From positions 95,921,501 to 95,985,500 of the forward strand of contig CP142452.1 in NCBI GenBank assembly GCA_038049695.1: 64,000 bases of DNA, given 5' to 3'. Every line of letters begins with the position of its first letter. Positions within the stretch are counted from its first letter, which is position 1. The notes beneath the pieces are model-generated. The model worked only from the letters and a program-made list of their open reading frames with translations, was not told the origin of the DNA and made no database searches. This DNA comes from Cinnamomum chago (lineage: Eukaryota > Streptophyta > Magnoliopsida > Laurales > Lauraceae). Position numbers and translations under genes: made by a program. Shown here one piece after another: positions 7,368 through 47,616 of this stretch.

Positions 7368-8043
7368 TATAAGTGCAGAAAAATATACTCACAAGATCAG
7401 GATGCCTTCAAGGACTTACTCAGAGTACCAGAGAAGGAGCTGCGTGTCTGTTGAACCTGAAAGGGGAGAAGAGAACGGTCAAAGGACCCTGGCTGGGGCA
7501 GCGCAGGGCTCTCCGACGCTCAAGTTAGCAGTGATCGGAGAAGAAGAAGGAAGAGAGGTCTAGGTTGCATGTAAGAGAGTGCATACCTCCATCTTGGGTC
7601 GTCCTATGCTTTATATGAGAGATTACTTTGGCGCCTGCGCCAGTGGGCCTCGTGATGTGACTAGGGTCTCATCAGCCCACACAGTCATTAATGAGGGTCC
7701 ATCACAGCCCTCATTGCATTTAATGAGGGTCCGATCAGCCCACATTGCATTTAATGCCAGTCACATTGGGCCAGACCTTGCCCTGATCTGTTGACGGCTG
7801 AGGTCTCATCGGACCCCTTTCTTGGCCCCCGTCCTTATGGGGGCTGTAGCCAAGGGATGCAGTTCTAGTCCGTGTAGCCGAGACTGGGCGGGGTGGCGTG
7901 GCCGAGCCGAATTGGATATCACTTTTCCGATATCAGCATCTAGTGCCGAAACTGAAGTAACGCTGGGTCCGCGTCCGAGGCCAAAAATGACGCGCCTAAC
8001 CGAAACCGAATAGGGAGTTAACTCGCGAGATGGGTCCCACACA
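7368..8043 (-). repeat. 3' LTR of the Tat element
   Basis: In minus orientation it runs TGTGTGGGACCC to CTGCACTTATA; the terminal TG/CA is damaged in this copy (TATA where the other LTR has TACA). A TATA-like CATATAAAGC on the minus strand near 7608-7617 fits the U3 promoter. It pairs with 17949-18624. Confidence 0.92.
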
Positions 8044-8058
8044 ATAGCCCCCCAGCTC
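8044..8058 (-). promoter_or_regulatory. Polypurine tract of the Tat element
   Basis: Directly before the 3' LTR in minus orientation the sequence reads GAGCTGGGGGGCTAT, a G-run-based polypurine tract that would prime plus-strand DNA synthesis. Confidence 0.75.
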
Positions 8059-8730
8059 TTGACCTCTTGGGCCGATGCGGCCCTGAGGTTGAGAGCTGAA
8101 CTGGTCTTCCGAAACCACTCAGCATTTATTCTGTTGGCGCCCCCAGCTAAGAATTCGGACCGTTCGGCTTTAAGGCGTAGCCGTCGTTTCATTCGCCCGA
8201 GGCAATCAAGAGGGCGATAAATGCAGAGACTATGATTGGCATTGGATGGCGGACCGTCGGCGCCACGCGTTATTGCCCGAGAGGCTTCCTTGTCACCTCG
8301 AGGCGGCGTGGGGAGGGAATCGAGACGACACCTCGCACGCCTCCCCTTTGAATTTCGGGATGGCGCCCCTCCCTTCCCTTTAAAGGCTTGCAGGCTTGTC
8401 TTCTCTCCATTTTCGCTTTCGTTCTTTCTTGCCCTCTGCGTTGGTCTCTGCTTCCTCTGCTAGAACTTCGGATCTCCGGCCTGAACCAGCGCTTCCAGAC
8501 CAGAACCAGCACCACCCTTACAGAATCAGAACTCCTAGTTGTTTTTCTATGGCCATCGCCTGCGGTCCGTCCGTCAGTCAGACCCTGCCTCTGTTGAATT
8601 AGTGAGTCCCTCATTCTTTCTTCTTTGTTTATATTTCTGACTAAGAACCCTAGGGTTCCCTCTGTCCCCCATTTTTTCGTTCTGCGTCTGCTCCTCCTTA
8701 GGGCTTCGTTAGGATTTCTTAGATTTAGGA

Positions 8731-10909
8731 ATGGGGGCTTTCAGTCACTGGATAGATTCCCAATCGGCCCTAGCAGAGCTCAGGAGGACCTTCAAGATCC
8801 CGGAGGACGTCCGGATGAAGGCCTCCGACCGGTCATCTGGCTATACTTTCAGTAACGGCTGGATGTCATTCCCCCTAATTGCCATTATCGAAGGTGGGGT
8901 TAGATTCCCCCTTCATCCCATTCTGAGGTCCTGCCTCCGAGCATGGAACCTCTGTCCATGCCAACTGATGCCCAACGGCTACAAGATCATCATGGGCGTA
9001 GCCGAACTGAATAGGATCTTAGGAATTAGCCTCGGCGTCCATGACATCGAAGATGTCTATGATCTCTGCAAGACCCAAGACGGCAACACGTATTATCTTC
9101 GGGTTAAAGCCAAGTGTTCTCCTCTCATCACGGCCTTGGAGGACTCGAATAAATACGCCGGAGATGATCGGCTACTCGTCTCCGGCAACTGGGAGTTCGG
9201 AGGGGCCGAATCCGAGACCACATGGAGAGTCCAGGTCCCGCGGACCTTCGGGACACCGCCGAGTAATGCCCTGTCCCTTCTGCCGGGTTTCGGATTATGA
9301 CTTTCCTCGTTAACTTTTACTCTAAGTCTATTCTTTCCTTTTGCAGGCCTTCTCCAGCGAAAGTGAGACGCTCACCTCGACCGTTGGAGGAGGAACAAAG
9401 AGTGGCTGGATAAAAGATACCGATACCGAGGCCACCACAACAGAGCAGCTTTCTCCTTACTTGGGTACGAGCCGAAGTACGCGTCTTATACGCGGAAGTC
9501 AGGCCGTCCTGGGGAGATAATTCTTGCTTTGGCCGAGGCTGCGAGCGGGCCTGTCACTGTTGCCGAAGCTTCCTCGTCGGCTGCTACGGCCGAGAGCGAT
9601 CCCTTGAGGGAGGTCAAAAACTTCTCAGACTCCGAAGAGATGGAGAGGCGTCGGCCAGCCTATCAACCGCGCAATTTAGCGGCGGCCATCTTTGGCGAGC
9701 AGAGAGCCGCCTCCAGCGCCCGTCCTCCCTCTTCCACCTCGATCGTTCCAGCGGTTCCCGAGGCCCAGCCCGCCGCTGAAGAGAGCGAGAGGCCCCGAAA
9801 GAGGGCAAGGGGGAAGTCCCCTGTCCGCGAAGACCGGCCACGGCAATCGCTGGTAATCAGGGAGAGGGCCAGAGCAGAGGAACCAATTCGGTCCGAGGCC
9901 TCGCCGGATCGGCGCTTTGAGTCGCCTCACGCCATAGTCTCGGTCGAACCAGAGGCCTTCAAGCCCGACCTCGAACTGTGGCCGGGGAGACCGCTGAACG
10001 TCGAGGACAAGGTCGTCGGGAACTCGGCCGTGATTACGGCTCTCTGCCGAGCCTGCGCGCTCCCCAAGGACGTGGAGAGGCACCAGGCAGAGGATAGTTC
10101 TCAGCTACTCATGAGAACGCTGCAGCACTCCTTCTTGGTAAGTGCCGATTTTCTGACTAACGATCACACTAGGTTCTCTGTGCGCGGTGCTAAATCTCGT
10201 CCGTCTCTTGCAGGTTGTCCAAAGGCTCCCGCTGGTCCTGAACAGGATCGCGGAGGAAGACGCTCGGCTGAACCGCTTGGCGGAGGAGAAAGAGCAGGCC
10301 GAAGCTGCAATGTCGGCCAAGAGCGAGGAGTTGAAGGAGGCTGAGGCCAAAAGGGCCGAGCTGGATGCCCAGGTCGTCTCAACGGTGTGTGAGCTCTCCC
10401 AAGCAAAAGCCGAATCGTTGACCTTACAGGAGAGGCTCGTCGCCGAGAATAGGAGGTCGGCTGAGCTAACGGCCGAGCTGGAGCGAGAGAAGGCGGCAAG
10501 GGAGGAACTCCTCGCGTCGAGACAAGCAGAAGTCGACGCCCCCTTCCTCGAAGGGACCGAAGATGCTGGGCGGAACTACACCGACCAAATTACGCAGCTG
10601 AGCCAGCAACTGTTCCGACCAAATTACGGCTGTCGGGCCGTGCTCAAGGAGATGGGGGTCTCGGAAGATCACCCGCTATATCTGAACCCTCCTGAGTTCA
10701 GGCCCCCAGCACCTGCCGAGACTACAGCCTCACCGCCTCCGGAGACTCCTGCCTCTCCACCTCCGAAGACTCCTGCCTCTCCTTCGCCAGAGATCCCTGC
10801 TCCCCCTCCAGAGGCCCCCGCTGACACGGCCCTGGGGTCTTCCGAAGCCAACACAACAGCCGATCCCGCGGTGGTCATCATTGACGAAGTCGAAGCGGGG
10901 TCGTCTTGA
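8731..10909 (+). pseudogene. Antisense three-exon gene of the Tat element (putative gypsy-type transposon domain plus coiled coil)
   Basis: It lies on the strand opposite to gag-pol, between the tandem array and the 3' LTR. My exon model is 8731-9262, 9347-10137 and 10214-10909. The donors are GTAATG and GTAAGT, the acceptors are TTTTGCAG and CTCTTGCAG, and the phases agree, for 672 codons plus stop. Residues 1-177 contain FPLHP and PNGYKII-like motifs and LGVHDIEDVYDLCK. These resemble the domain annotated in plants as a putative gypsy-type transposon protein (Transposase_28-like). Exon 2 is charged and low in complexity. Exon 3 starts with a long Glu/Ala/Lys coiled coil (about residues 446-540) and ends in a Pro-rich repeat of PPETPAS type. 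One in-frame TGA at 9364-9366 (codon 184) breaks an otherwise open frame. The function is unknown; no catalytic motif is seen. A related copy lies at the right edge of the window. Confidence 0.75.
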
Positions 10910-11251
10910 GCTTCGTTTTTGTTTCTTTGTTTAATGAAAGATGTAATCTTCTTTTGTTTCTTTTTGTTTTGGCAGTGGTGTAACTGGACCTTTGTAAATT
11001 TTATCAATGAAATTCCTTCGTTTCTCAAATGAAGTTTGTCTCTTTTGAATTCCATTTTGTTTGTGGCTTGCTACTTGCATGGGGATGTGCGTTTCTGCTT
11101 CTTTGCCCTTTCTTCTCTTTTTTCTTGTTTGTACTTTTCACGTGTGGGGGTTCGGTAGAGGTAGATCGACTGGATTAGGGTATGCCACTGGCACTAGTTC
11201 CTTGCTAAGCTCACTCGTCTCGGCAGCATAGCCGTTATGCCAAGCGGAAAT

Positions 11252-11955
11252 TGTGCTATTTCGGCTCTATGCCTAGGTGGTGGCTGGGTGCTAACCTTAG
11301 ACGGTCTCACCGTTGGCCATTTCGGCCTTCACGTCTAGGTGACTGAGTGCCAACCTTAGACGATTTCACCGTCGGCCATTTCGGCCTTCACGTCTAGGTG
11401 GCTGAGTGCCATCCTTAGACGATCTTGCCGTTGGCCATTTCGGCTGCACGTCTAGGTGGCTGGGTGCCAACCTTAGACGATTTCACCGTCGGCCATTTCG
11501 GCCTTCACGTCTAGGTGGCTGAGTGCCAACCTTAGACGATTTCGCCGTTGGCCATTTCGGCTGCACGTCTAGGTGGCTGGGTGCCAACCTTAGACGATTT
11601 CACCGTCGGCCATTTCGGCTTTCACGTCTAGGTGGCTGAGTGCCAACCTTAGACGATTTCACCGTCGGCCATTTCGGCCTTCACGTCTAGGTGGCTGAGT
11701 GCCAACCTTAGACGATTTCGCCGTTGGCCATTTCGGCTGCACGTCTAGGTGGCTGGGTGCCAACCTTAAACGATTTTATCGTTGGCCATTTCGGCTGCAC
11801 GTCTAGGTGGCTGGGTGCCAACCTTAGAAGATCTCGCCGTTGGCCATTTCGGCTGCACGTCTAGGTGGCTGGGTGCCAACCTTAGACGATTTCACCGTCG
11901 GCCATTTCGGCCTTCACGTCTAGGTGGCTGAGTGCCAACCTTAGACGATTTTATC
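11252..11955 (-). repeat. 58/59-bp tandem array in the 3' region of the Tat element
   Basis: About twelve units of 58-59 bp, each built on GGCCATTTCGGC, ACGTCTAGGTGGCTG and GTGCCAACCTTAGACGAT. Two variants are interleaved: a 59-bp form with GGCCTTCACG and CTGAGTG, and a 58-bp form with GGCTGCACG and CTGGGTG. The array lies just past the end of pol in element orientation. Tandem arrays in this place are known in Tat elements and have been proposed as a source of satellite DNA. There are no unique spacers between units, so it is not a CRISPR array. Confidence 0.93.
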
Positions 11956-12052
11956 ATTTATATTGTTGCTAGACTGCCAACGACCGCCAGACCGCCTCGA
12001 ATTGAAGACGAATGTAGCTTTATTAAATCGAAAAGTTTTATACAAGTACAGA

Positions 12053-15000
12053 TTAAAAATAGAATTTCTTGAGAAGTGATGCATTCCATGGTCTCGGCAG
12101 TGGCCGTCCTTCCATGTCCTCGAGTCGGTAGGCCGACCGCCCGGCACTGGAAGTCACCTTAAATGGGCCATGCCAATTCGGTGCCAGCTTGCCTTGATTC
12201 GGATCCTTGTCCCCCGGGAGTGCCTTCTTGAGAACCAGCTCTCCTATAGAGAATTTCCTCTCTTTGACATTCTGGTTGTAGCCCCTGGTCAGCTGTCGCT
12301 GGTAGGCGGCCAGTCTAACTGCAGCTGCATCCCTTCGTTCGTCTGCCAAATCCAGTTCCCTGGCCACGTTAATTTCGTTCTATCCCTGGTCAAAAAGTTT
12401 AGATCTTAAAGTGGGGAGGCCGATCTCCAGAGGGATGACCGCCTCCATACCATAGGCCAGTGAGAAGGGGGTAGCCGAAGTGGAACGTCTTGGAGTGGTC
12501 CTTTAAGCCCATAGGACGCTTGGAAGCTCTTCCACCCATCTTCCCTTTGCTCGGTCCAGTCGTTTCTTTAGCCCGTCAAGGATCACCTTGTTAGAGATCT
12601 CAGCCTGGCCGTTGCTCTGTGGGTAAGCTGGGGTGGAGTAGCGATTGCGGATGCCGTTCTCCTGGCAGAAGCTTCTGAAGAGCTTGGAGTCGAACTGAGT
12701 TCCGTTGTCCGAGATCAATATTCTGGGGATGCCAAACCTTGTGACGATGTTTTTCCATATGAAATTTTTGGAGTCCTGCTCCGTGATGGAGGACAACGGC
12801 TCTGCTTCGATCCATTTGGTGAAGTAATCCGTGGCTATTATCAGCCATCTTTTGTTTTCAGGAGTTCGGTGGAGCGGTCCCACTATGTCGAGCCCCCACT
12901 GGGCGAATGGCCACGGACTAGAAAGCGGACTGAGGTCCTGTGCTGGCTGATGGAGAGAGTGGGAATACTTCTGACACTTCTCGCATTTCTTCGCGTACAC
13001 CTGCGCATCCTTCTGCATATATGGCCACCAGTAGCCCTGGCTGATAGCCCGATAGGCTAATGACCTTCCTCCGATATGGCTTCCGCAAATCCCTTCGTGT
13101 ATTTCGAAGAGAAGGTCCTCCACCATGCTCGGATGAACGCACTGGGGGTACGGGCCTGTGTACGATTTCTTGTAGAGCTTGATTTCGGGAGACAACCAGA
13201 ACCGGGCTGCTTTGAGCCTAATTCGATGGGCCTCGCTGCTGTCTTCGGGTAGCTTGTCGTCCTTGAGGTAGGCGATGATGGGGTCCATCCAACTCGGGCC
13301 GAGGTCAACACACGACACTTCCCGAGGTGGATGGAGCTCGATGCTGGGTGCAGCTAAGGGTTCCACTTCGATGGTTCTCTTTCTTCCTGCTTCGACAGCA
13401 CTGGCTAAATTTGCAAGGGCATCTGCATGGGAGTTCGCTTCTCTACCTATCTATTTGATTTCGGCCTTATGGAGCTGGGAGAGCAGCTTCTTTGCCAGAG
13501 CCAAATACGCAGCCATCCGGTCGTCGCGAGCTTGGTAGTCCCCAGTCAGCTGGTTTGCCACCAACTGTGAATCACTGAAGACCACCAGCTGTTGAGCTCC
13601 GAGGATTTTGGCGCTGTTCAGTCCGGCTAGAAGGGCTTCGTACTCGGCTTCATTGTTCGACGCCTTGAAATCCAGGGTCAGAGCTTGCTCGACGACCAGT
13701 CCTTCTGGCGATTGGAGAACAACTCCTGCACGGGCTCTTCTCGAGGTAGAAGATCCGTCAACGAAGACTTTCCAAACTGGGGTGACGACTTGGCTTTGTG
13801 ATTGTTCAGAGCCCGTGGGCGCCTCATGCTCCTTGCCCCCGAGTTCGGTGCCGAGCTGAGTTGGTGCCGAACTTGAATCGAACTCGGCAAGGAAATCTGC
13901 CAGAACCTAAGCCTTGATCGCTGTCCTGGGCTGATATTGAATTTCATATTGCCCTAGTTTGACAGCCCATCTTGAAATTCTTCCTGAAAAGTCAGCTTTT
14001 CTGAAAACAGACTTGAGTGGATGTTCCGTAACAACCACTATAGTATGTGTTTGAAAGTAATGAGAGAGCTTCCGCGAGGCACTAACGAGCGCCAGCGCGA
14101 GCTTCTCGAGTGGCAAGTATCTGGTCTCGGCATCAATCAGAGTTTTGCTCGTATAGTAGATTGTTTTTGGACCCTATCCTCTTCTCGGAGGAGGACTGAG
14201 CTCACTGCATGATCCGAGACCGCTAGGTACAAATATAGAAATTCTCCATGGGCCGGAGTGGACAGTAGAGGAGGTGAGGATAAGTAGACCTTAAGCGCCT
14301 GCAAGGCCTGGTCACATTCTTGAGTCCATTGAAATTTAAAATTCTTCCTAAGAAGCTGAAAGAAAGGCCGGCACTTATCTGAGGATCTGCTGATGAACCG
14401 ATTTAGTGCGGCCACCATCCCGGTTAGCTTTTGGACCTCTTTAGCCGAGGTGGGACCCTGCACTCTAAGGATAGCGGAGATCTGGTCTGGATTTGCCTCT
14501 ATCCCTCTGCGTGTGACCAAGCTTCCCAAGAATTTACCGGAACCGACACCAAAGGCGCACTTGGAGGCGTTGAGCTTGAGCTTGAACCTCTTCAAAGTGG
14601 CGAAGACTCCGGCCAGGTCTGCCAAATGGGTATGGGCTTGCTTGGACTTGACCACCATGTCATCGATGTAGACTTCAACAGTCTTGCCGAGCTGATCGTG
14701 GAACATCTTGGTGACAAGTCGCTGGTAGGTGGCTCCTGCATTCTTCAACCCAAACGGCATCACCTTATAACAATAAGTCCCTCTGGGTGTGATAAAAGCT
14801 GTATTCTCTTCATCCGGCCCATACAACGGGATCTGGTGATAGCCGCGATATGCATCGAGGAAGCTCATTCTATCGTGTCCGGCTGTGGCATCGATCATCT
14901 GGTCGATCTTTGGGAGGGGAAAGCTGTCCTTGGGACAGGCCTTGTTCAGGTCGGTAAAGTCGACGCACACCCTCCACTTGCCGGTCTTTTTCTTGACGAC

Positions 15001-17901
15001 CACGGTATTGGCTAGCCAGGTCGGGTATTGGACCTCTCTGATGGCGCCGGCCTCGAGCAGTTTATCCACCTCTTCGACCACGGCTTCGGTTTGTGGCACC
15101 CCAGTCCTGCGAGCTTTCTGCATCACCGGCTTATGATTATGGTCCACATTCAATTTATGGCATATTACCTCAGGGTCCATGCCAGGCATCTCTTGAGGCG
15201 TCCAGGCGAAGGCTTCTCTGTTCTGCACCAGGAACTGGACCAGTTCGGTCTTCTCTGGCTCTCCAAGCTGACTGCCGAGCAAGAAGAACCGTTCCGGATC
15301 TTGCGAATCGATTCTGATTTCGGTCAGGTCCTCCACGCTCTTGCTCTCTGGGTCCTGACCAACCTCGTCTAGCTTCTTCTCCAGCCACTTTTCCATCTCG
15401 GCCATATTAACCTCCTTGGGCTCTCACTCTCCGGATACCACGGCTGTCAGGCATTGTTTGGCCGTCTGCTGATCTCCTCTGACAGTGATGATTTCAATTC
15501 TGTCATTCTTTCCTTCCCAAGGGAATTTCAACTTCTGGTGGAGAGTGGAAGGGATCGCCTCCAGACTATGAAGCCAAGACCTCCCCACTATAGCGTTGTA
15601 AGGCGAGGGTGCGTCAATTACCATGAAGGTTGTCTCAACAGACACTCCGCCGGCCTCGACCTTAAACGTCACCTTTTCCTTGGGGTACACCGGTTTGGCG
15701 CTGAAGCCAATGAGGGGAATTCGGGCCTCCTGCAGGTCCTTCTCCGTCAGTCCCATCCTCCGGAAGCTATCAAAATAGAGGACTTCGGATGAACTACCGG
15801 GGTCGACGAGGACCTTCTTCACGGTGCAGTTCTTCACGCCTTGCTTGGAGCAATCAAACTTCAGGGTTACGATCAGCGGGTCGTTGTGGGGAAGCTGCAC
15901 CCCTTCCAGGTCTGCATCGGTAAACCTGATTTCGGGCCGCTCCCTCCGAGCCCTCTTCGGAGCTGAGCCGAGTTCGGCGGCCATGACTTGCTTACTGTGA
16001 GAGGCCTGCCTGGCCTCGGCACGAGCTCGGCTACTCCCCTTGGGCGGGGGAGCCAAATGGATGACGTTAATGATTTTCTCTGACTTGTCGCTGTCGTGGC
16101 CTCTCTCGCCTCGGCGTGGAGCTCGGGTGTCGGCTCTGGTGTCTGTTTTGACGAACTCCTACAGGTGTCCCTCTTGGACAAGCGTTTCTAAATGTGACCG
16201 CAGTATTTTGCATTCTTCAGTCTTGTGGCCGCCCTCCTTGTGATACGCACAAAATCTCGTCTGATCTCGGGTAGACGGGTCGCCTTTCATGGGCTCTGGC
16301 CAGCTGAAGTACGGCTTGGATTTAATCTTGTATATGATCCGGTGGATAGGCTCCTTGAAGATTGTGTTAACTGCCCGATATGTGTCTTCGGACAGCCTTG
16401 GCCTTTTGCCTCTCGCCGAGGTGAACGCCTGAGCCCTTGCCGAGCTGGTAGGCACCCTTCGCCGGTCTGACTCTTCTCTTCGTCGCTCGTCTCTCTGTGG
16501 CTCGTCTCTTCGGGACGGCCCCCTGTCCTTCTTGGAGGACCTCTCACTTCAGTCCTTCTGCGCAACTCCATGGTTTTCCCGAGCCCGGACCTAGTCTTCC
16601 TCTTGGGCGATGTACCGGTTGACGATGGACATGAGCGCTGTTATGGAAGACACCGGGTTTCTGGCTAGGTCTTTGCGAAGGTCACTGTCTGGCAGCAGGG
16701 CATTCCGAAATGCGAAGACGGCCACTTCGTCCTTGGAGTCTTCAATCTGGCTGTAGACGGTCCGGAATCGCTTCGCGAACTAGGTGACGTTCTCCCCTTG
16801 CTTCATCTTCAAGGCCATGACATCTGCATCTGTCTTTGACAATATTCTATAGGTCTGGAACTTCTTCATAAAGGACTGCTGGAGTTGCTGCCAACTCGAA
16901 ATGGACCCCTCCGGGAGCGCACAGAACCACTTCAGGGGGAGGTCACCCAAACTGGAGGAGAAGACTCGACAGTTCAGATCTCCCCAGACTGACATCCTCT
17001 GGGAGAAGTGCCTGAGATGCGTAGCTGGGTCCGAGGTCCCGTCGTAAGTGACAAACCTCGGGACGGTGAACTTCTTTGGCAGGGGATACTTCCGGATATC
17101 GCGAGAGAAAGGAGACGCGCCGAGGTCGATGGGGTCGCAGCAAACATCCTTTTGGTCTCGGCCGAGACCAGCCACCTCCAGATTGCGCTGGACCGTTTCC
17201 CTTATGCGCGCGTCCAACCACTCTTGATCATGATACCTGCTCTCCGGAATGGCTTCTGATGCCTTCCTCGAATAGCTATGGCTAGCACTCGAGCCTTCGT
17301 CTCGAGTTCGGTCGCGCCTTTTCTTATTCAGATGGTCCCTCAAGTCCTTCTCGGGGGAGTCGGGGCGCCTACCACGAGACATCCTCCTCTCGTGCTGTCG
17401 CTGTGAGCGCTGTTGTAGCGACCACTGCTGCTGAGAGTGCTGCTGACGTCCTGCTGAACCCGTAACTCTTTCCAGCTGCTGCTGGAGCTGGAGGATCAGA
17501 GCATCTCTCTCCTCGATGGCCTCATTCTGCGCTCTGATCTCCTCAAGGGTGGAGTCGAAGTCATTACTGGGATTATATTCTTCATCCTCAGAGTCCTCAG
17601 CATCCTCGGCATCCTCCATCTGATCAGAAGGACGTGGTCCATCGACCACTGGAGACTTGCTCCGCCGATTTCGACCAGTCAGGGGGCCTCCCTCGGGCTG
17701 CTGCTGAGAGTTTCTCCTCCGGAGAGCGGACTCCAAGCGAGGATCACGCTCCTGAACGTTGATTCGGACGAGGCCACGCTCGACGTCATCCTCTGCAACT
17801 GGTTCCTTCCCGGACCTCTTCTTAGCAGGGAGGAGGTCAGAGGACGGTCGTGCACGCCTTGCCTTGGATGTTTCTCCGTCTTTCGCAGCTCTCCTCGTCA
17901 T
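12053..17901 (-). pseudogene. Tat-lineage gag-pol polyprotein, disabled
   Basis: The likely start is the ATG at 17899-17901 (MTRRAAKDGE), 28 bases after the PBS. In order I see: a capsid region (about 17200-16600); a gag zinc-knuckle-like CAYHKEGGHKTEEC near 16230; an aspartic protease with VLVDPGSSSEVL near 15790; reverse transcriptase with YIDDM near 14680; RNase H; a second archaeal-type RNase H with VDGSS, NNEAEYEAL, FSDSQLV and SHADALANL (about 13790-13410); and integrase with an HHCC-type CEKCQKYSH, DIVGP and SDNGTQF. The end is KKFYF and a stop at 12053. Stops interrupt the frame near 16780, 16590, 16550, 16159, 15424, 13907, 13452, 12503 and 12400, and one base is lost near 14163. Several stops fit C-to-T change in CAG, CGA or TGG codons. 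The protein would make the particle, copy and insert the element; this copy cannot. Confidence 0.9.
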
Positions 17902-17928
17902 GGTGATAGGGAAGATTGCAGAAATCGT

Positions 17929-17946
17929 TCCCCACAGACGGCGCCA
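17929..17946 (-). promoter_or_regulatory. Primer binding site of the Tat element (tRNA-Asp-like)
   Basis: On the minus strand, two bases after the 5' LTR, the sequence is TGGCGCCGTCTGTGGGGA. The first nine bases match the complement of the 3' end of plant tRNA-Asp, the usual primer of Tat-type elements; the rest matches less well. Confidence 0.75.
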
Positions 17947-17948
17947 AT

Positions 17949-18624
17949 TGTAAGTGCAGAAAAATATACTCACAAGATCAGGATGCCTTCAAGGACTTAC
18001 TTAGAGTACCAGAGAAGGAGCTGCGTGTCTGTTGAACCTGAAAGGGGAGAAGAGAACGGTCAAAGGACCCTGGCTGGGGCAGCGCAGGGCTCTCCGACGC
18101 TCAAGTTAGCAGTGATCGGAGAAGAAGAAGGAAGGGAGGTCTAGGTTGCATGTAAGAGAGTGCATACCTCCATCTTGGGTCGTCCTATGCTTTATATGAG
18201 AGATTACTTTGGCGCCTGCACCAGTGGGCCTCGTGATGTGACTAGGGTCTCACCAGCCCATACAGTTATTAATGAGGGTCCATCACAGCCCTCATTGCAT
18301 TTAATGAGGGTCCGATCAGCCCACATTGCATTTAATGCCAGTCACATTGGGCCTGACCTTGCCCTGATCTGTTGACGGCTGAGGTCTCATCGGACCCCTT
18401 TCTTGGGCCCCGTCCTTATGGGGGCTGTAGCCAAGGGATGCAGTTATAGTCCGTGTAGCCGAGACTGGGCGGGGTGGCTTGGCCGAGCCGAATTGGATAT
18501 CACTTTTCCGATATCAGCATCTAGTGCCGAAACTGAAGTAACGCTGGGTCCGCGTCCGAGGCCAAAAATGACGCACCTAGCCGAAACCGAATAGGGAGTT
18601 AACTCACGAGATGGGTCCCACACA
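17949..18624 (-). repeat. 5' LTR of the Tat element
   Basis: 676 bp, in minus orientation TGTGTGGGACCC to CTGCACTTACA, with intact TG and CA termini. It differs from the 3' LTR at about 14 positions. It is followed outward by the TSD GTATG at 18625-18629. Confidence 0.93.
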
Positions 18625-18629
18625 GTATG

Positions 18630-19205
18630 GATTTTCTGCATCTCATAAGATAATCACTGCAATTTGGGATTTAAGGTTTACACTTGCAGAACCATGGCAC
18701 AAAATTATTACGTAAAAAGAAGTAGCTTCATAAAATAAAAGTCGGATTTATTACAGCCTTTTGTTTTATAACAAACTCAGAAAATCAACACCATCAAATA
18801 ACGGCAATAAGGTGAATCTTAACACACAAAGGAGAAAGAAAAAATCTAGTGACTTTGGGGCACACTGAAAACCTTAATCACCATCAAACAACAACAAGAG
18901 AGTAAATCCAACCCAAAAAGATTGAAACTCGATCACTTTTAGGTCCTTTTGCACCAAACCAGCATCGTTCGAGCTTGTGCCATATCCAACAAAGCCACAT
19001 CGATGGCACCAATGAAACTAGAAAGAGAATTACCTGGAAAAGTATATCACCGTCTGCAATCTTTAACAAGAAACGAACAAAGGCTATATCCATGCACCAA
19101 AAGAATAACGCCCCAACACTACCCCATGGTCTTCGTATTGTTATAGACAATGCAGAGTAAAACAATACCATCAAGGCGGCGGAGAAGAACAATAAGTCTA
19201 CCCAG
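18630..19205 (-). pseudogene. Ankyrin/membrane-protein gene tail, duplicated copy A
   Basis: Read on the minus strand this matches the last exon of the ankyrin gene at 44075-47532. The shared features are the segment ending RFLLKIADGDILF (RFWFKIADGDLLY in the other copy), the next membrane segment, WIWHKL and a GPKSD tail. The stop codon used in copy B is CGA here (18929-18931), so the frame reads on. The upstream ankyrin exons are not found beyond 19205. It is a truncated duplicate whose 3' flank was later split by the Tat element; the flank continues at 6837-7362. Confidence 0.8.
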
Positions 19206-20809: not shown

Positions 20810-20814
20810 AAACT

Positions 20815-21270
20815 TGTTGGAAAAATTCCATCATGTGGGGCCACACATATAACTATTAAATGTGTTATGCTATATTTAATTAAGCCTATATTAAAGTGAT
20901 CTAATTAAGAATTAAAGTTCTAATGCTTAAGGGTATAATTGTCATGGGATTAATGTGTAGATACCAAAATATTATTTCTAATTTGATGATGGGCCAAATT
21001 AGAAATAACAAACCTATGATATCTTATATATTGGGGTTATGGTCCCCAATTCATATGATGAATTCCTATTTTCTCTGACATCACATCATCAGAAGAATCA
21101 AGAGAGTTACTCTGGGTAGCCATATTGGATTAGAAGATCAACAACCTGTGAACAACTTCATTCAATGGATCCAGGTATGTTTCCGCTTTACTTCTCTCAC
21201 TGATTTGACATGAATGATCTTGGTTTATTAAGGCTTCCTAGATCAAAGATTTAGATTATTGTTTCTAACA
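20815..21270 (+). repeat. 5' LTR of the copia element
   Basis: Starts TGTTGGAAAAATTCCA and ends TTTCTAACA. A TATATA box at 21025-21030 would place the RNA start some 30 bases downstream, near 21055-21060. The ATG and splice donor described at 21165 would then lie in the transcribed part of the LTR. Confidence 0.95.
21165..21180 (+). promoter_or_regulatory. LTR-encoded start codon and splice donor for copia gag
   Basis: The 5' LTR contains ATGGATCCAG followed by GTATGT, a near-ideal plant donor (CAG|GTATGT). Joining 21174 to the acceptor at 24249 gives ATG GAT CCA GCT AGT in the exact frame of gag. No in-frame ATG exists in the unspliced leader, where TAA codons lie just upstream of the conserved gag sequence. 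The 3' LTR has the same ATGGATCCAG, but its donor GT is changed to AT. The splice is inferred from sequence only. Confidence 0.6.
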
Positions 21271-21272
21271 AC

Positions 21273-21284
21273 TGGTATCAGAGC
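21273..21284 (+). promoter_or_regulatory. Primer binding site of the copia element (initiator tRNA-Met)
   Basis: TGGTATCAGAGC begins two bases after the 5' LTR and is the standard plant copia site complementary to the 3' end of initiator tRNA-Met. It lies inside the proposed leader intron, so spliced RNA would lack it. Confidence 0.93.
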
Positions 21285-22648
21285 GTCTCCATGTTAAGCC
21301 ATTAGGAATCCAGATATATATATATATATATCAATCTGTTGATATTCTGTTCTTTAGTTGTAATCTGTTAATTTCTTCATTAAGAACTTCAAGCAAGTTA
21401 TCAATGTCATTGTAACGTATGCCATTGTTATCAATCCCTTTTTTTCAGGTTTTGGTTGGTTGGAACGGGAAAGTAGGTTTGGATTATTTAAATGGTTAGT
21501 TGGTTCTTTGCTATGTCTGCTCCCGATTATGGTTCGGTAGTGTTTTAATTGGGTCTTTGATTTTAGTGGATATGCAGCCCTTCATCTGTTTTGCAGCAGA
21601 TTCCAGATGGGTTTTTTTTATAAAGAAAGGGAAACAGTTTTATTAACTGCAATTTGATAGATTAGGAGTCTGGTGAAGTTGAAAGTTGAAACTATCGTCA
21701 ATTTGTGCATTAAAGTGATAGATCTGGAGTGTCAAGTCAATGGATCCAGAATCCTTTTTCTTTTCGTCGGCATGTTCTGCTCCATATGGGCTCTCTTCTT
21801 ATTCTCTCTTTTCTGTTCCTGACCTAAAAACCCAAATCTCCTTCCGATTAATCTTCCACCGTTGGATGATGTAGACATACCACTTTTACTGTTGAATGAT
21901 GAAGAGTGATTTTGGTTTGGTGGAGAAAGCTCCATTCTTTGATTATTGAATCAGTAAGCTCCATTCTTTGATTATTGAATCAGTGAAGAAGAAAAGAAGT
22001 TATTGAAGGTTACATAACGTTGTTTTTTTTTTTTTTTGGGAGAAGATGTTGGGTCATATGGTAGTCCGTGGGAGCACACTTTATAGTGGTCCGCGGAAGC
22101 ACACTTTATGGTGGTCCAAGGGTTTTTTTTAATAATTTTTTTTATTTTTTTATTTATTTATGGTGACATGTAAAGACAACTAATTGGTTTTCTTCAAACA
22201 ACAATTCAAATGTTTTATGGTATATCTTTTATGGTTAAATAAAATAGTCCATTATTCTAAATGGCCTAATTGAAACAAGATGTCACCAAAGTGATCTCTC
22301 TTGTATAGATTGTTCATGAGGAATATTTGATGTTTGTGTGTGTGTAAATTCATGTGGGTCTTAGTCGGCCCAAAGGAAGGTTAATACTTAGCCGAATTGC
22401 ATACACACCTGTGGTGGTAAACGTGTAACGATTATAAGGTTTTTACATGTGAATAATAAGTTGATCCAAAGATAGATTTATTATTTGACATGAATTATTG
22501 TCAATGTTTGATCACTACAACAAGATGACCATTTACAATTAATATTACTGTCCAAAGACTTGATATTAATGTTGTGCTAGCTAGGTACCTTGACATGAGA
22601 CTTACCATTATTTGAATTTGTTGATTCTGTATTTGGTTAATAATATGA

Positions 22649-24208
22649 TGGAAGCGCGTCGTCAACACTCCAAAATATACAACCTTACTTCTAGATACGA
22701 CACAAAAACAAAAAGAAAACAAACACAGTAGCTAGGTGAGTAAGGGTCGATCCCACAGAGAGTGTTCACTATTTCTTCTCTTTTTATGTATATATTTTTA
22801 TTCCGACCGATTCTGACAAAACACTAAATGGGGGGTATTGGAATTGTGATCAAACTGATTATGGTTTGATTATGATTGATTAAAATAAAACTAAATTAAT
22901 AACAGAAATCAATGGATCAAAGCTTCAGTTCTTCGGTTCAATCTTACCCTCACAATTGATGGAACAATCAATCAATTGTAACATTGTTCTACCCTTCAAT
23001 GAAACTAATAATCCTAGGTAACAACAAGCTCTGCTACCCGAAATTCCTCTTAATTCCTCACTAATGAAACAAGCTCTCCATTAGATTCTAACCATTATAC
23101 AATTTAAAACAAGTTCTCTAAATTCAATATAATGGCAGCATTAACATCGAGGGAAATAGATTATTTTAAGCAACAGTCACGCATGTTCGGATTGTTTAAC
23201 CTAACTCATGATAATCATAGCAATAAACGAAAGCTTCTCAGCAATCATATATCACCATTTACTACAATTGATTAGGAACAATATCAATTACGTAATATAA
23301 TTCCTGAATCTAGCAATTAACAATAATCTGATCAATCTAATGGATCCTAATTAAATTGACCAAACCAAATATCAATAAAAACAATTAAAACAGATTATCA
23401 TGAAGAGATTCATAAGAGAAGGGAGAAATAATGTTACTGAATTGATTCAACCATCAAAATGCAATGAAGGTTCGAAATCCCCTTGAACTGAATTGAAAAC
23501 CCTAGCCTGACATGCTTGAATACGAAAACTGCAGAATATTTTTTTTCTCTCTCCATCCTCCTCTCCAACCCCACTTTAAGAAGCCTTAAATAGATATACA
23601 AAATATATGATAGCTTCCCCAAACGTGTACAACTCAAATCCCTACATTATAGGTAATTCAAAACGGATTGACAGAAATCCCAGAAATTATGCCGCAGGTT
23701 GTGAGGGGTTTTTCTATCATATAACGGCGGAATCTTGACTTGGTATCTTCATGAAAGTTGTAGCCCTGGATGTGTAGATGATTCTAGGGTTTTGAATCAC
23801 CCGATTTGGACTTCGGAAACTCAAGTTATGGCCCATTTAAGTTTACTGGTTCGGACAGGAATCTCGGATCCGTTTTCCAGGCCTAACTTTAAAGCAATGT
23901 TTGGAGGCCCAAACGAACTCGGATTTTTGCGAACCAGACCTTTCTGAAAAGCTTAAGACGTCCTCTAAAAACTTCATGAAGACCACTTTCTCGTTCTGAA
24001 ACTCCAACACCATCCAAACCTCAATTGAAGCTCCAGGGATCAAATCTGCCTAAAAGCTGGAAACTTGCACAATAAATTCCATATCCATTCTTTTACCTTC
24101 AATGCTTCCCTAATTCAATAAACATATTAATCAACACACTTAAACACAAAATATTTGACAAAACTAAATATAAAGGAATTCAAAATATTAAATATTATGC
24201 TCTTATCA
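22649..24208. mobile_element. Solo-LTR-like insertion nested in the copia leader
   Basis: A 1,560-bp block starts TGGAAGCGCGTCGTCAAC and ends CTCTTATCA, with 5'-TG and CA-3' termini, and is flanked by the perfect 5-bp repeat TATGA (22644-22648 and 24209-24213). No coding region, PBS or second LTR is visible, so a solo LTR or a non-coding LTR derivative is most likely. It lies within the proposed copia leader intron. Confidence 0.7.
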
Positions 24209-24224
24209 TATGAGCATGTTTGTC

Positions 24225-24249
24225 TGTTTGTTTTTGTTCTCTTTACAGC
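24225..24249 (+). promoter_or_regulatory. Splice acceptor before copia gag
   Basis: A pyrimidine-rich tract (TTTGTTTTTGTTCTCTTTACAG, ending at 24248) precedes the first conserved gag codons. It is the partner of the donor at 21175 in the model where the LTR carries the start codon. Confidence 0.6.
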
Positions 24250-27200
24250 TAGTGTTTCTACTATATCTGTTAATATCAACTCTATACATGTACTTAATGG
24301 GACCAACTTTAAGGATTGGAAAGAGAACATAGAAATTGTTCTCGGCTGCATGGATTTAGACCTTGCACTAAGGATTGAGCAACCCGCTTCTCTTACGGAT
24401 GCAAGTTCTCCTTATGACAAGAAGAACTTTGAGAAGTGGGATCGCTCAAATCGCATGAGTCTTATGATCATCAAGCGCGGCATTCCGGAGGCATTTAGGG
24501 GTGTGGTATCTAAAAAACCAACCACAATCAAAGAATTCCTAGCCGAAATTAAAAAGCGTTTTCTGAAAAACGATAAGGCTGAAACAAGCACGCTTTTGCA
24601 AAGCTTGATTTCTATGTAGTACAATGGCAAGGAGAACATACGGGAGTACATAATGAGAATGTCTCATATTGCTTCTAAACTTAAGGCACTTAAGCTCGAG
24701 CTATCTGACGACTTGCTAGTGCATTTGGTATTAATATCACTTCATGCACTATACAGTCAATTTAAGGTCAGTTACAACTGTCAAAAGGAGAAATGGACTC
24801 TTAATGAGCTCATTTCTTACTGTGTGCAAGAGGAAGAGAGATTAAAGCAAGACAGAACCGAAAGTGCTCATTTGGCTAGCACCTCTAAGGATAAGGGCAA
24901 AGATAAGGGCAAAAAGAGGAAGAAAAATGAAACTGCTAAGGGTTCAGCAGAAAAGAAACAACAGCCAGCAACTGAGGGTTGTTTTTTTTTTGCAATAAGC
25001 CTGGACATGTAAAGAAGGACTGTACCAAATATCACGCTTGGCGTGTAAAGAAAGGTACATTTCTTGCTTTGGTCTGTTCTGAGGTAAATTTAGCTTTAGT
25101 ACATAGAAACACGTGGTGGTTGGATTCTGGTGCTACTACTCACATCAGTGTTTCTATGCAGGGTTGCCTGAGTTACTGAAAGCCAAGTGATGCTGAAAGA
25201 CACATCTTTGTGGGCAATGGAAAGTCGGTAGAAGTAGAGGCAATAGGGCATTTTAGGTTGTTATTAAAAACTGGTTATTATTTGGATTTATTAGATACTT
25301 TTATTGTACTGTCTTTTCGACGGAATTTTGTTTCGATTTCTTTATTTGACAAGTTTGGTTATTTTTGTTCATTTGGAAATAATCAATTCAGTTTATCTAA
25401 AAATTCAAATGTTGTTGGAACTGGTTCTCTATGTGTATATGACAACTTATGTTTGCTTGATACAATTGTTTCTTATAATGAATCCTTGCATGTGGAATCA
25501 CGAGGTACTAAATGCAAACTGAATAAAGAAAACTCGGCTACATTATGGCACAAATGCTTAGGTCACATCTCTAAGTTTAGAGTTGAGCGACTTGTGTCTG
25601 ATGATATTTTAGATTCCCTTGACTTTACAGACTTTGATGTTTGTATTGCTTGCATCAAGGGAAAACAGACCAAAATGAAGAAATTAGGTGTCAATAGAAC
25701 TACAGACGTCTTAGAATTGATACACACAGATATCTGTGGACCATTCCCTACTACTTCCTGGAATGGCCAACAGTATTTCATATCATTCATAGACAATTAC
25801 TCTTGCTATGAGTACCTATTTCTCATTAATGAGAAATCACAGTTATTGGACGTGTTCAAAACATTTAAAGATGAAGTTGAGAACCAACTCAACAAAAGAA
25901 TAAAGAGTGTCAGGTCTGATCGTGGTGGTGAATACTACGACAGATATGACGGTTCAGGTGAACAACGTCCATGACCGTTTGCTAAATTCCTAGAGGAATG
26001 TGGAATCGTCCCACAATACACCATGCCAGGGTCACCTAGATGAATGGTGTAGCTGAAAGACGAAACCAGACTCTTAAGGATATGGTAAGGAGTATGATTA
26101 GTCATTCCACTCTACCAGAGTCACTTTGGGGAGAAGCACTCAAAACAACAACTTATATTCTGAATAGAGTGCCAACTAAAGCAGCTTCAAAAACACCTTA
26201 TTAGCTTTGGACAGGCAGAAAGCCTAGTCTAAAACATTTTCACATTTGGGGATGTCCAACTGAGGCAAGGCCTTACAGGTCACATGAAAAGAAATTGGAC
26301 TCCAAAACTGTGAGCAGCTACTTCATTGGCTACTCTGAACGATCTAGGTGTTGAGGTCATAATTGTGGTCGAGCCCTCGCCCTCACCATAAAACTATTGT
26401 TGTGCCGTTTCCTATCACCAATTGGTTTTGGGATAAGTGGTAGCTCAATAGGGTGTAAGATCCTACAAGTGGTATCAGAGCCTGGTAGCTCGGGTGTTCG
26501 AATCATGGGACACGCGTTTTACGAGTTCGAAGCAGGAGTCGCGGCGGGTGTGTCGTTGAGGGAGGGATTGTTGAGGTCAACGTCCACCCTCGCTTCTGAG
26601 CGGTCATAATTGTAGTCGAGCCCTCGCCCTCACCATAAAACTATTGTTGTGCTGTTTCCTATCACCAATTAGTTTTGAGATAAGTGGTAGCTTAATAGGA
26701 TGTAACATCCTACACTAGGGGCTATAAGTTTTATGATCCCACACTTAGGTCAATTTTTGAGACGGGAACTGCAACATTTTTTTAGGATGTTGAGTTTGGG
26801 GGGAGAAATAAGGATAGAGACATTGTCTTTCAGGGAGAATCGGTTACGATTCCCACTATTGCTTTTGACAATGTGTAGGTTTCTATACCTGTCATTGATC
26901 AAAAAGCGAATCCGGATCCTCAACAAGACAATGTTGATCAACCCCCCATTCAAGATGAGGAACAAACTCAACAACCTCAAGAACCAATGCCATTAAGGCG
27001 ATCCACTAGAGAGAGGAGACATGCTATTTCGGTCGATTTTTTCGTATTTCTCCAAGAACATGAGGAAGAAATTGGAATGGTGGAAAATGATCCAATCAAC
27101 TTCCATCAAGCCATGCAAGGTTCTAATTCTCAAAAGTGGATTGATGCCATGAATGAGGAATATAAGTCTATGCAAGACAATAAGGTTTGAGAACTTGTCC

Positions 27201-28670
27201 CATTACCAGAAGGTACGAAGCCCATTGGTTGCAAATGGATTTTTAAAACCAAAAGGGATTCAAATGGTAATGTGGAGAGGTATAAGGCTCGTCTTGTAGC
27301 TAAATGCTTTACCTAAAAGGAAGGGATTGACTTTAAAGAGACTTTCTCTCCGGTTTCATCGAAAGACTCTTTTAGGACAATCTTGACACTAGTTGCACAT
27401 TTTGATATTGAGCTTCGTCAAATGGATGTCAAAACAACATTTCTCAATGGTGACATTGACGAAACAATTTATATGATGCAGCCATAAAACTTTGAGTCGG
27501 GAGACCTAAAGAATATGGTCTGTAAATTGACAAAGTCCATCTATGGACTCGAGCAAGCTTCTCGTCAATGGTATCACAAGTTTCATCAAGTCATTATCTC
27601 GTTTGGTTTTGAGACAAACGCTGTTGATAATTGTGTATCACAAATTCAGTGGGAGTAAGCACATATTCCTGGTTTTGTATGTCGATGACATATTGCTTGC
27701 CACAAATGATATAGGCATGTTGCATGAAACCAAGAGATTTCTATCAAAGAATTTTGCGAAGAAAGATCTTGGTGACGCCTCTTTTGTATTAGGGATCCTG
27801 ATACAACGAGATCGCTCTCGAGGTATTCTTGGATTATCACAAAGAAGCTATATTGATAAAATGCTCAAAATGTTTGGCATGCCAGACAGCAAACCAGGTG
27901 ACACCCCTGTCTCTAAGGGAGACAAGTTCAGTCTCAATCAATGCCCCAAAACTAACCTTGAAGTTAAGGAAATGCAGAAGATTCCGTATGCATCACCTGT
28001 AGGGAGTCTAATGTATGCTATGGTGTGTACGCGTCCGGATATTGCATACATTATTGGTATGTTAGGCAGATATTTAAGCAATCCAGGGATGGATCATTGG
28101 AAAGCAGTCAAGCGGGTTATGAGGTATTTACAGAGAACAAAAGATCATATGCTTACATGCAGGAGATCGGATCAGTTTGAGATCATAGGGTATTCCGACT
28201 CCGATTATGCTGGATGCCAAGACAGTATAAAATCCACATCATGCTACATATACCTGTTAGCAGGTGTAGCTATTTCTTGGAGGAGTGTCAAACAGACACT
28301 CGTAACTGATTCCACCATGGCAGCAGAGTTTGTAACATGCTATGAGGCATCCAACCAAGGAATATGGCTGCGAAATTTTGTCACTGGGCTGCGAGTTCTG
28401 GAGGGTATTGAAAGACCACTCAAACTATATTGTGACAATAAATCAGCAGTGCTATATTCCAACAACAACAGGAGCTCAATTAGGTCAAAACATATTGCCA
28501 TTAAGTTCCTAGTTGTGAAGGAGAGAATACAGGATAGACAAATATCCATAGAGTACATTGGGACAAACTCCATGATAGCGGATCCGCTTACAAAGGAATT
28601 ACCACCCAAGGTCTTTCATGAGCAGACTTCTCATATGGGTGTTATTTTGTGTGAGGATATCACATTATAG
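24249..28670 (+). pseudogene. Copia gag-pol polyprotein, disabled
   Basis: Gag is recognised by VLNGTNFKDWKENIE and GCMDLDLALR. It ends in a CCHC knuckle (CNKPGHVKKDC) that is thrown out of frame by an extra T in the run near 24980. Protease follows (WWLDSGATTHIS, about 25110), then the GAG-pre-integrase region LWHKCLGHIS, integrase (IHTDICGP, DRGGEY), and NGVAERRN after a frameshift near 26038. FIGYSERSR is then interrupted by the TRIM. Reverse transcriptase ([22 protein letters not shown] at about 27675) and RNase H (SDSDYAG, EYIGT) end at 28670. Stops occur near 24617, 25177, 25972, 27188, 27315 and 27485, with further frameshifts, so no functional polyprotein can be made. The RT-RNase H part from 27660 to 28670 is still one open frame. 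Confidence 0.93.
26349..26714 (+). mobile_element. TRIM (miniature LTR retrotransposon) nested in copia pol
   Basis: A 366-bp element with LTRs at 26349-26467 (119 bp) and 26569-26714 (146 bp). Both start TGTTGAGGTCA and end ATCCTACA. A TGGTATCAGAGC primer site lies at 26470-26481, and a purine tract GAGGGAGGGA lies just before the 3' LTR. The TSD CTAGG (26344-26348 and 26715-26719) is perfect. Removing it restores the conserved copia sequence SERSRGYKFYDP. The 5' LTR lacks about 27 bp present in the 3' LTR, between two GGTCA pentamers, consistent with a short-repeat deletion. It has no coding capacity and depends on other elements' proteins. Confidence 0.92.
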
Positions 28671-29089
28671 TGGGAGTTTGTATCATTTTATGTTTTATTG
28701 CTTTATGTTTGATTTTGAACACACTTATGCATTTATGTATTTGGATATTATTCTGATCAGAAATACAGTATTCGGTTCATTTCACTCTGTTACATTGTGT
28801 TAAATATTGATCTCCCTAAGGAATACAGTAGGACCAGTTGGAAATAGACATGTATAGATCACATTGCATGTACTTTCTATGCTACGCATCCATGATTGAT
28901 CTATGTCATTTGGTTATGTTGGTGTACGTGACCATTGATGGGTTTAGTCATGTTGAAAGTTACGAATACCGTTTTGATCCTATACCGGCATAATCAATGG
29001 ACGAGATTGTTAGGATATATCCTAAATTATGATAGCAAACTTTTGGAACTCATACAGTCATACACATTTGTTAAGTTACATATATGGCC

Positions 29090-29100
29090 CAGTGGGAGAT
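29090..29100 (+). promoter_or_regulatory. Polypurine tract of the copia element
   Basis: CAGTGGGAGAT abuts the 3' LTR, the usual form of copia polypurine tract. Confidence 0.8.
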
Positions 29101-29555
29101 TGTTGGAAAAATTCCATTATGTGGGGCCACACATGTAACTTTAAATGTGTTATGCTATCTTTGGTTAAGCCTATATTAAAGTGATCTAATTAAGAATTAA
29201 AGTTCTAAGGCTTAAGGGTATAATTGTCATGAGATTAATGTGTAGATACCAGAATATTATTTCTAATTTGATGAGGGGCCAAATTAGAAATAGCAAACCC
29301 ATGATATCTTATATATTAGGGTTATGGTCCCCAATTCATATGGTGAATTCCTATTCTCTCTGACATCCCATCATCAAAAGAATCAAGAGAGTTACTCTGG
29401 GTAGCCATATTGGATTGGAAGATCAACAACCTGTGAACAACTTCATTCAATGGATCCAGATATGTTTCCGCTTTACTTCTCTCAATGATTTGACATGGAG
29501 GATCTTGGTTTATTAGGGTTTCCTAGATCAAATATTTAGATTATTGTTTCTAACA
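29101..29555 (+). repeat. 3' LTR of the copia element
   Basis: 455 bp, TGTTGGAAAAATTCCA to TTTCTAACA, followed by the TSD AAACT. It differs from the 5' LTR at about 24 positions and one indel. One difference changes the splice-donor GT to AT. Confidence 0.95.
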
Positions 29556-29560
29556 AAACT

Positions 29561-30873: not shown

Positions 30874-31141
30874 TGTTGAGGTCAATGTCAACCCTCACTC
30901 CCGAGCGGTTAAAATTGTGGTCGAGTCAACGTCCTCACCATAAAACTATTGTTGTGTCATTTTTTTTTATCACCAATTGGTTTTTAGATAAGTGATAACT
31001 TAATAGGGTGTAAAATCCTATAAGTAGTAGGTTAGGTAGGTTGGGTGTTCGAGTCACGGGACATGCGTTTTGCGAGTTGAGCTTATGCCATTAGGTTTGG
31101 TAGGTTGGATCTTATGCCATTTCCATCACCAATTGGTTTTT
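30874..31141 (+). mobile_element. Relic of the same TRIM family
   Basis: It starts TGTTGAGGTCAATGTCAACC and follows the LTR of the TRIM at 26349 (ACCATAAAACTATTGTTGTG, then TCACCAATTGGTTTTT). The match continues through a decayed ATCCTATA end into internal GTTCGAGTCACGGGACA. A second TCACCAATTGGTTTTT piece at about 31125 may be a remnant of the other LTR. The primer site and TSDs are not recognisable. Confidence 0.7.
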
Positions 31142-41995: not shown

Positions 41996-42200
41996 CACTA
42001 CACCAAAAATCGAAAATTGGAACGGAAAAGCGTTCCTAATCCTCCCGTTCCTAATTCGTTAAACCGTTCCAATTTCCGTTCCAATTTGGTACCAACCGTT
42101 CCTAATCCAAATTGGAACGGAAATTGGAACGGTTTAACGGATTAGGAACGGGAGGATTAGGAACGCTTTTCCGTTCCAATTTCCGATTTTTGGTGTAGTG
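41996..42200. mobile_element. CACTA-type MITE inside the hexosaminidase exon
   Basis: A 205-bp, almost fully palindromic element. It starts CACTACACCAAAAATCG and ends CGATTTTTGGTGTAGTG, with the 3-bp TSD GCA (41993-41995 and 42201-42203). CACTA ends and a 3-bp TSD define the En/Spm superfamily. The interior repeats TTGGAACGG and CCGTTCC motifs on both arms, so the RNA would fold into one long hairpin. Precise removal restores GGT GCA ATG AGG in the exon. Confidence 0.93.
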
Positions 42201-47532: not shown

Positions 47533-47616
47533 TGGGAAAGGTGGAGAAGGGGGTTGGTTTTATCATTTCCATAGGAATGCTACCAAGAAGTGAAAGGATC
47601 TGGAGACGAAACAAGA

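What the first reader, a model, noticed from the sequence alone, without database searches (positions are those of the whole stretch)
21165..24249. Copia element whose gag start codon lies in the LTR, joined to gag by a leader intron that removes the primer site
Seen: ATGGATCCAG|GTATGT in the 5' LTR, a pyrimidine-rich acceptor ending ACAG at 24248, and an exact in-frame junction into conserved gag. No in-frame ATG exists in the unspliced leader, where TAA codons sit just before the gag frame. Inferred: translation of gag requires splicing, and the spliced RNA loses the PBS (21273-21284) and leader. Messenger and genomic RNA would then be two separate pools made from one promoter. Plant retrotransposons are known to splice around gag and pol, but a coding first exon within the LTR that jumps over the PBS is unusual. 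The 1,560-bp nested LTR would sit inside this intron without harming it.
Basis: partly seen in the sequence, partly recalled or inferred. Interest (0 to 1): 0.82.

Follow-up and report, generated by a model that had tools for sequence, protein, structure and literature searches.

The report
Copia gag start spliced from LTR
In one group of plant jumping genes the first codons of the capsid gene sit in the repeated end of the element and appear to be joined to the rest by splicing, which would also cut out the site where copying into DNA begins; several unrelated-looking families in the same genome share this layout.

Summary
The letters are as described: in the 5' LTR of a decayed Copia element (20815-29555), ATGGATCCAG|GTATGT (21165-21180) is in phase with an acceptor ACAG (24248) at the start of gag, and the intron would remove the PBS. 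One statement fails for this copy: an in-frame ATG exists (24197), brought in by a nested solo LTR. Of 25 gag-selected copies with a readable donor region, 18 keep ATG, GT and AG together. The stronger evidence is other families. Families 2 and 3, with LTRs that do not align with this one, share the anatomy: TATA-like site, then the first ATG 100-109 nt before the PBS, a 10- or 13-nt coding exon, a phase-matched acceptor. Family 4 shares it too, but its ATG is intact only in LTRs whose gag was not read. None of 7 ordinary-ATG families with a readable LTR has it. Splicing itself is not shown: no RNA data, no spliced genomic copy found. Best reading: an old lineage trait in which splicing supplies the gag start codon and makes an mRNA that cannot be reverse transcribed. 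Ten library searches showed no report of this design.

The parts
20810..20814 (+). target-site duplication AAACT (left)
   Evidence: AAACT also follows the 3' LTR
20815..21270 (+). 5' LTR, 456 bp, TG..CA
21024..21030 (+). TATA-like site (TTATATA), 249 nt before the PBS; start of RNA inferred about 30 nt downstream
   Evidence: start of RNA not tested
21165..21174 (+). predicted coding exon 1, ATGGATCCAG (M-D-P-), inside the LTR
   Evidence: ATG intact in 22 of 25 copies
21175..21180 (+). predicted splice donor GTATGT
   Evidence: GT in 22 of 25 copies
21175..24248 (+). predicted phase-1 intron of 3,074 nt over the rest of the LTR, PBS and leader (1,030-1,782 nt in 24 copies without the nested LTR)
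21273..21284 (+). primer binding site TGGTATCAGAGC, inside the predicted intron
22649..24208 (+). nested solo LTR, 1,560 bp, flanked by TATGA (22644-22648 and 24209-24213); brings an in-frame ATG at 24197
   Evidence: no match to it in the stretches read of the other 29 copies
24230..24248 (+). predicted pyrimidine-rich acceptor ending ACAG
   Evidence: AG in 29 of 30 copies
24249..24616 (+). predicted exon 2, N-terminal part of gag, open to TAG 24617-24619
24620..25009 (+). rest of gag (Pfam Retrotran_gag_2), same frame, then frame lost
24976..25971 (+). zinc knuckle, gag_pre-integrs and integrase core in another frame (broken copy)
27531..28667 (+). part of reverse transcriptase (RVT_2) and downstream
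29101..29555 (+). 3' LTR; donor position reads CAG|ATATGT
29556..29560 (+). target-site duplication AAACT (right)

Best explanation
The window holds a decayed member of a Copia lineage in which the gag start codon lies in a very short coding exon in the LTR. RNA starting near 21055 (inferred) would reach its first internal AUG at 21165. Spliced, it reads M-D-P/S-A-S-V-S.. straight into gag and loses the end of the LTR, the PBS and the whole leader, so it can be translated but not primed for reverse transcription. Unspliced, that AUG opens a reading frame of 12 codons followed by dozens of leader AUGs, so the RNA keeps the PBS and can serve as genome but not as gag mRNA. Splicing at one intron would thus decide the fate of transcripts from one promoter. 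Shown: anatomy, its presence in most copies read, and its recurrence in other families. Inferred: splicing, transcription start, translation, and the two fates.
For: Exon 1 plus donor: 69 exact places, 0 reversed. Gag-selected copies: ATG and GT together in 19 of 25, with AG 18 of 25; acceptor AG 29 of 30; intron length varies 1,030-1,782 nt while its edges hold. No ATG in the 105 nt before exon 1 in 23 of 24 LTRs; 27-49 ATGs in the predicted intron of 24 copies without the nested LTR. Family 2 (gag 37 and 34% identical): ATGTCTGGAG|GTACTC 100 nt before the PBS, acceptor CTATTACAG|TT, phase 1; 370 exact places, 0 reversed; 28 of 38 gag loci on C1+C2 have it upstream. Family 3: ATGGCACAATCAG|GTACC 109 nt before the PBS, acceptor TTCTTCAG|TT, phase 1; 68 exact, 0 reversed. 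Family 4: ATGGATCCAG|GTATGC with ATG intact in 2 LTRs, acceptor TTTTACAG|CT, phase 1, in L105. LTRs of families 1-4 align only at the PBS and in short bits. A first ATG with in-phase donor arises in 53-82 of 5,000 shuffles per LTR, four LTRs tried. Seven ordinary-ATG families lack it.
Against: No RNA evidence. Within the family exon 1 and donor are no more conserved than nearby LTR letters (exon 1 0.925, donor 0.972, neighbours 0.92-0.97). In-frame ATG in the unspliced leader of 8 of 30 copies. L079 has no GT after ATGGATTCAG and has an ATG after its acceptor; L107/L108 also have an ATG after theirs. L105 reads ACG for ATG. L082's acceptor reads GGAG instead of ACAG and its leader has in-frame ATGs. 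Two ATGs (21055, 21058) lie at the inferred start of RNA; if RNA starts slightly earlier, 21165 is not the first. No spliced genomic copy found in three families (with 19, 56, 89). The intron is hardly richer in A+T than exon 2 (0.643 against 0.623).
Confidence: 0.8

Rival explanations
1. A leader intron exists, but the LTR codons are incidental: gag starts at an ATG after the acceptor, and splicing only shortens the 5' untranslated leader.
For: L079 and L107/L108 have an in-frame ATG within a few codons after the acceptor.
Against: Copies of families 1, 2 and 4 that were read have no such ATG between acceptor and conserved gag block, except one directly before the motif in L105; in each family the LTR exon ends in the phase that fits the acceptor.
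Confidence: 0.1
2. Gag is translated from unspliced RNA, by an in-frame leader ATG, a non-AUG codon, shunting or internal entry.
For: 8 of 30 copies have an in-frame ATG shortly before gag.
Against: 22 of 30 lack one, 17 of them with TAA at -43; those present vary in position; 27-49 ATGs precede gag in 24 copies.
Confidence: 0.06
3. The match is a coincidence: a short upstream reading frame in the LTR that happens to end at a donor-like site.
For: Chance of a first ATG with in-phase donor is 1.1-1.6% per LTR, and within-family conservation is not above neighbours.
Against: Recurs at a similar distance from PBS and TATA-like site in families with non-aligning LTRs, each with a phase-matched acceptor; absent from 7 ordinary families.
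Confidence: 0.03

Closest known systems
BARE1 of barley (Copia), PMC3735527, passages read
   Same: Copia element with separate RNA pools for translation and copying; a spliced subgenomic gag RNA; donor CAG/GTAT
   Different: The 104-nt BARE1 intron lies at the end of gag and makes a stop; gag has its own start codon after an untranslated leader; the pools come from two TATA boxes, not from a leader intron
Rice tungro bacilliform virus P4 mRNA, PMC5902531, passages read
   Same: Splicing fuses a short leader reading frame to a distant reading frame so that the latter is translated
   Different: A pararetrovirus without LTRs (recalled); the distal frame is ORF IV, not gag; the MP-CP-RT frame is read from unspliced RNA
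EVADE of Arabidopsis (Copia), PMC12786077, passages of a review
   Same: Splicing used to raise Gag output
   Different: Intron removes the protease part after gag; the start codon is not involved
Ty1 of yeast, PMC5454406, passages read
   Same: PBS lies directly after the LTR inside the GAG reading frame, so GAG starts before the PBS (my inference from the passages)
   Different: No intron over the PBS (recalled)
Ogre (Gypsy) of pea and Medicago, named in PMC6317226, passages read
   Same: Spliced plant LTR element
   Different: Intron between gag-prot and the rest

Membership tests
Ty1/copia LTR retrotransposon | two LTRs TG..CA with 5-bp target duplication | tested here: met
Ty1/copia LTR retrotransposon | PBS complementary to initiator Met tRNA after the 5' LTR | tested here: met
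   TGGTATCAGAGC 21273-21284; match to plant tRNA-iMet is recalled, not computed
Ty1/copia LTR retrotransposon | copia-type gag; integrase before reverse transcriptase | tested here: met
   Retrotran_gag_2, zf-CCHC, gag_pre-integrs, rve (29 bits, cut-off 32.6), then RVT_2
Spliceosomal intron | GT..AG ends, pyrimidine tract, phase-compatible exons | tested here: met
Spliceosomal intron | removed from RNA | not testable with these tools
   no RNA data; spliced genomic copies sought and not found (with 19, 56, 89)
BARE-type spliced-gag Copia | intron at the end of gag that truncates the product to Gag | not tested
   only the leader intron was examined; this copy's gag-pol is broken
Named Copia lineage (Ale, Ivana, Tork and so on) | placement of RT or integrase in a reference tree | not tested
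   no reference set at hand

The most novel reading that the evidence does not exclude
A whole lineage of plant Copia elements gates its life cycle by one intron: the LTR carries the first three or four gag codons, so that only spliced RNA can make Gag and only unspliced RNA, which keeps the PBS, can be copied. mRNA and genome would be mutually exclusive products of one promoter, and the trait is older than the divergence of families whose LTRs no longer align.
Probability: 0.55. Interest if true: 0.85.

Novelty: new variant of a known kind. Interest (0 to 1): 0.72.

Why it matters
How an LTR retrotransposon shares one RNA between translation and reverse transcription is an open question. Here the two uses would be made exclusive by a single splice whose sites can be read in hundreds of copies, so the question becomes testable with ordinary RNA-seq. 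It also means that gene models and TE annotation that expect a gag ATG after the PBS will miss or truncate gag in this lineage.

Tried and rejected
Spliced genomic copies: three junction patterns. One search gave 41 places against 40 for the reversed pattern; I checked the 20 that were cut out (L009-L028) and none is followed by gag; the other 21 were not read. Searches gave 0. Not decisive: an RNA without PBS is not expected to leave copies. L011-L013 hold exon 1 plus a donor-like letter run but lie in stretches that resemble hAT transposase genes (my reading, no call), with no PBS or gag motif. Relatives in IMG/VR and GTDB contigs: none confirmed. Within-family conservation as proof of selection: not discriminating. 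In one search the longest shared stretch between the LTRs of window, L114 and L115 is exon 1 plus donor, but L114-L116 had been picked by that pattern, so this counts only for the 5 letters beyond it shared by L114 and L115; L065 shows no such stretch with them. L105, picked by gag, independently shares 13 letters there with the window. Rows dropped: of 40 scored gag hits (141 candidates) I read 30, window included; 10 were not read; 5 of the 30 (L055, L056, L057, L071, L077) have no LTR donor region in the stretch read. L080 and L081 are of the ordinary kind, L081 broken by a stop; L106 has no PBS in 2.5 kb.

Full report
What is there. The window lies in a 1.06-Gb genome held without a name; its genes and elements are those of a plant, which is my reading. 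A Copia element runs from 20815 to 29555: LTRs of 456 and 455 bp, 433 of 458 aligned columns identical, target duplication AAACT, PBS 21273-21284. Domains run gag, zinc knuckle, gag_pre-integrs, integrase, reverse transcriptase. The copy is dead as a coding element: gag stops at 24617, the frame is lost near 25000, and pol lies in pieces. With a recalled rate of 1.3e-8 per site and year, its LTR divergence suggests about two million years.

The predicted splice. It is the gift of a nested solo LTR (22649-24208) flanked by TATGA, whose first 652 letters match 40 places, itself included, 19 others over the whole stretch at 98-99%, some in pairs about 9 kb apart. That LTR ends 40 nt upstream of the acceptor, so it may have replaced the branch point; whether this copy would still splice is open.

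Other copies of the family. The exon-plus-donor pattern has 69 exact places and 0 when read backwards. To avoid choosing copies by the feature, I took copies by gag (40 scored of 141 candidates) and read 30 of them, the window included. Twenty-five have the donor region: ATGGATTCAG 11, ATGGATCCAG 7, others 7; ATG 22, GT 22, both 19, with AG 18. The acceptor AG is kept in 29 of 30. Without the nested LTR the intron measures 1,030-1,782 nt (24 copies), so its length is free while its edges hold. In 23 of 24 LTRs no ATG occurs in the 105 nt before exon 1, and the predicted introns of 24 copies without the nested LTR hold 27-49 ATGs. In the window two more ATGs (21055, 21058) lie right at the inferred start of RNA. 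Eight of 30 copies have an in-frame ATG in the unspliced leader. Within the family, exon 1 and donor are not better conserved than their neighbours, so these copies alone would not prove selection.

Other families. A degenerate gag motif found 280 places, 0 reversed, and a wider one 3,828, 25 reversed; both lists show only the first places. Six loci from the first were read and 20 from the second; three of these were then extended and a further copy added. Family 2 (L082-L084; gag of L082 and L083 37 and 34% identical to the window's) has no in-frame gag ATG in L083 and L084; its LTR carries ATGTCTGGAG|GTACTC 100 nt before the PBS (all three copies) and its acceptor is CTATTACAG|TT in L083 and L084. 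In L082 the acceptor reads GGAG and its leader has three in-frame ATGs. The pattern has 370 exact places, 0 reversed, and 28 of 38 family-2 gag loci on C1 and C2, the contigs fully listed in both calls, have it upstream on the same strand at 711-1,503 nt. Family 3 (L107, L108) carries ATGGCACAATCAG|GTACC 109 nt before the PBS and acceptor TTCTTCAG|TT; 68 exact places, 0 reversed. The three gag loci of this motif among the 100 listed each have it 2.2-2.3 kb upstream (places compared by eye). It also keeps an ATG after the acceptor. Family 4 (L105) has ACGGATCCAG|GTATGC, 123 nt before the PBS, in that copy and acceptor TTTTACAG|CT; two further LTRs of the family (87 and 86% identical) have the ATG intact, but no exact PBS in the piece read, and their gag was not read. 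L114 is an LTR of possibly a fifth family with the same exon 106 nt before its PBS; its gag was not read. L079, a sister of the window's family, keeps ATGGATTCAG at the right place but no GT in register, and has an ATG after its acceptor.

Common anatomy. In families 1 to 3 and L105 a TATA-like site lies 249-267 nt before the PBS, and in families 1 to 3 an ATG with a phase-1 donor lies 100-110 nt before the PBS, with no other ATG between it and the inferred start of RNA apart from the two in the window named above. The acceptor leaves the same phase in families 1 to 4 and L079. LTRs of families 1 to 4 align with each other only at the PBS and in short bits; L079's aligns with the window's. Seven ordinary-ATG families whose PBS could be read lack an ATG with a phase-1 donor in the last 330 letters before it (two have a phase-2 one); an eighth (L113) had no PBS in reach; the decayed L105 and L079 also fail this strict test. 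A first ATG with an in-phase donor arises in 53-82 of 5,000 shuffles of four LTRs. On 46 gag residues the families with the LTR exon find their best partners among themselves and L092, never among the 17 others (of which L096 is of doubtful start); scores within the group run from 17 to 133, the low ones from broken copies, against a mean of 26 and a maximum of 56 to the others. So the layout looks like an inherited trait of one gag clade, kept while the LTR letters changed.

How it most likely works. Shown: the anatomy and its recurrence. Inferred: RNA starts about 30 nt after the TATA-like site; spliced RNA gives Gag and carries no PBS; unspliced RNA keeps the PBS, and the LTR AUG leads only to a peptide of 12 codons (read). 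The two uses of the transcript would then be exclusive. No spliced copy was found in the genome in three families (of whose 41 places 20 were checked; searches places), which fits an mRNA that cannot be copied but would also fit no splicing.

Comparison with the literature. I read passages of seven papers and no whole text. BARE1 is the nearest in purpose, RTBV P4 the nearest in mechanism, Ty1 the nearest in start-codon place. None of the passages describes an LTR start codon joined to gag over the PBS. The library lacks most subscription papers, among them an Arabidopsis Copia survey that I sought by DOI, so a report elsewhere is possible; splice donors in the R region of foamy viruses and HTLV-1 are recalled, not read.

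Noticed in passing
7370-18250: Gypsy-type element on the minus strand (RVT_1, integrase) with 300-nt terminal pieces 99% identical, so probably a recent insertion; inside it an array of 58-59-nt repeats at 11269-11951.
   Followed up: no
26355-26467 and 26602-26714: A 113-nt stretch repeated (94%) inside the pol region of the Copia element, with a weaker third copy at 30910-31022; perhaps a small nested element.
   Followed up: no
24980-25000: The frame is lost in a run of T that encodes part of the zinc knuckle; could be slippage in this copy. Other copies not compared.
   Followed up: no
L105, L107, L108: 1.9-2.2 kb between PBS and the gag motif, against 99-100 nt in the ordinary families L085 and L088; other ordinary families have longer leaders too.
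   Followed up: partly
18859-19094 and 44005-44249: Stretches near 18.9 kb repeat stretches near 44.1 kb at 79-88%; an ankyrin-repeat reading frame lies about 3 kb beyond, at 47023-47559.
   Followed up: no
42138-42608: Reading frame with a glycosyl hydrolase family 20 domain, probably a host gene.
   Followed up: no
61616-62497: Four direct copies of a unit of about 200-238 nt.
   Followed up: no
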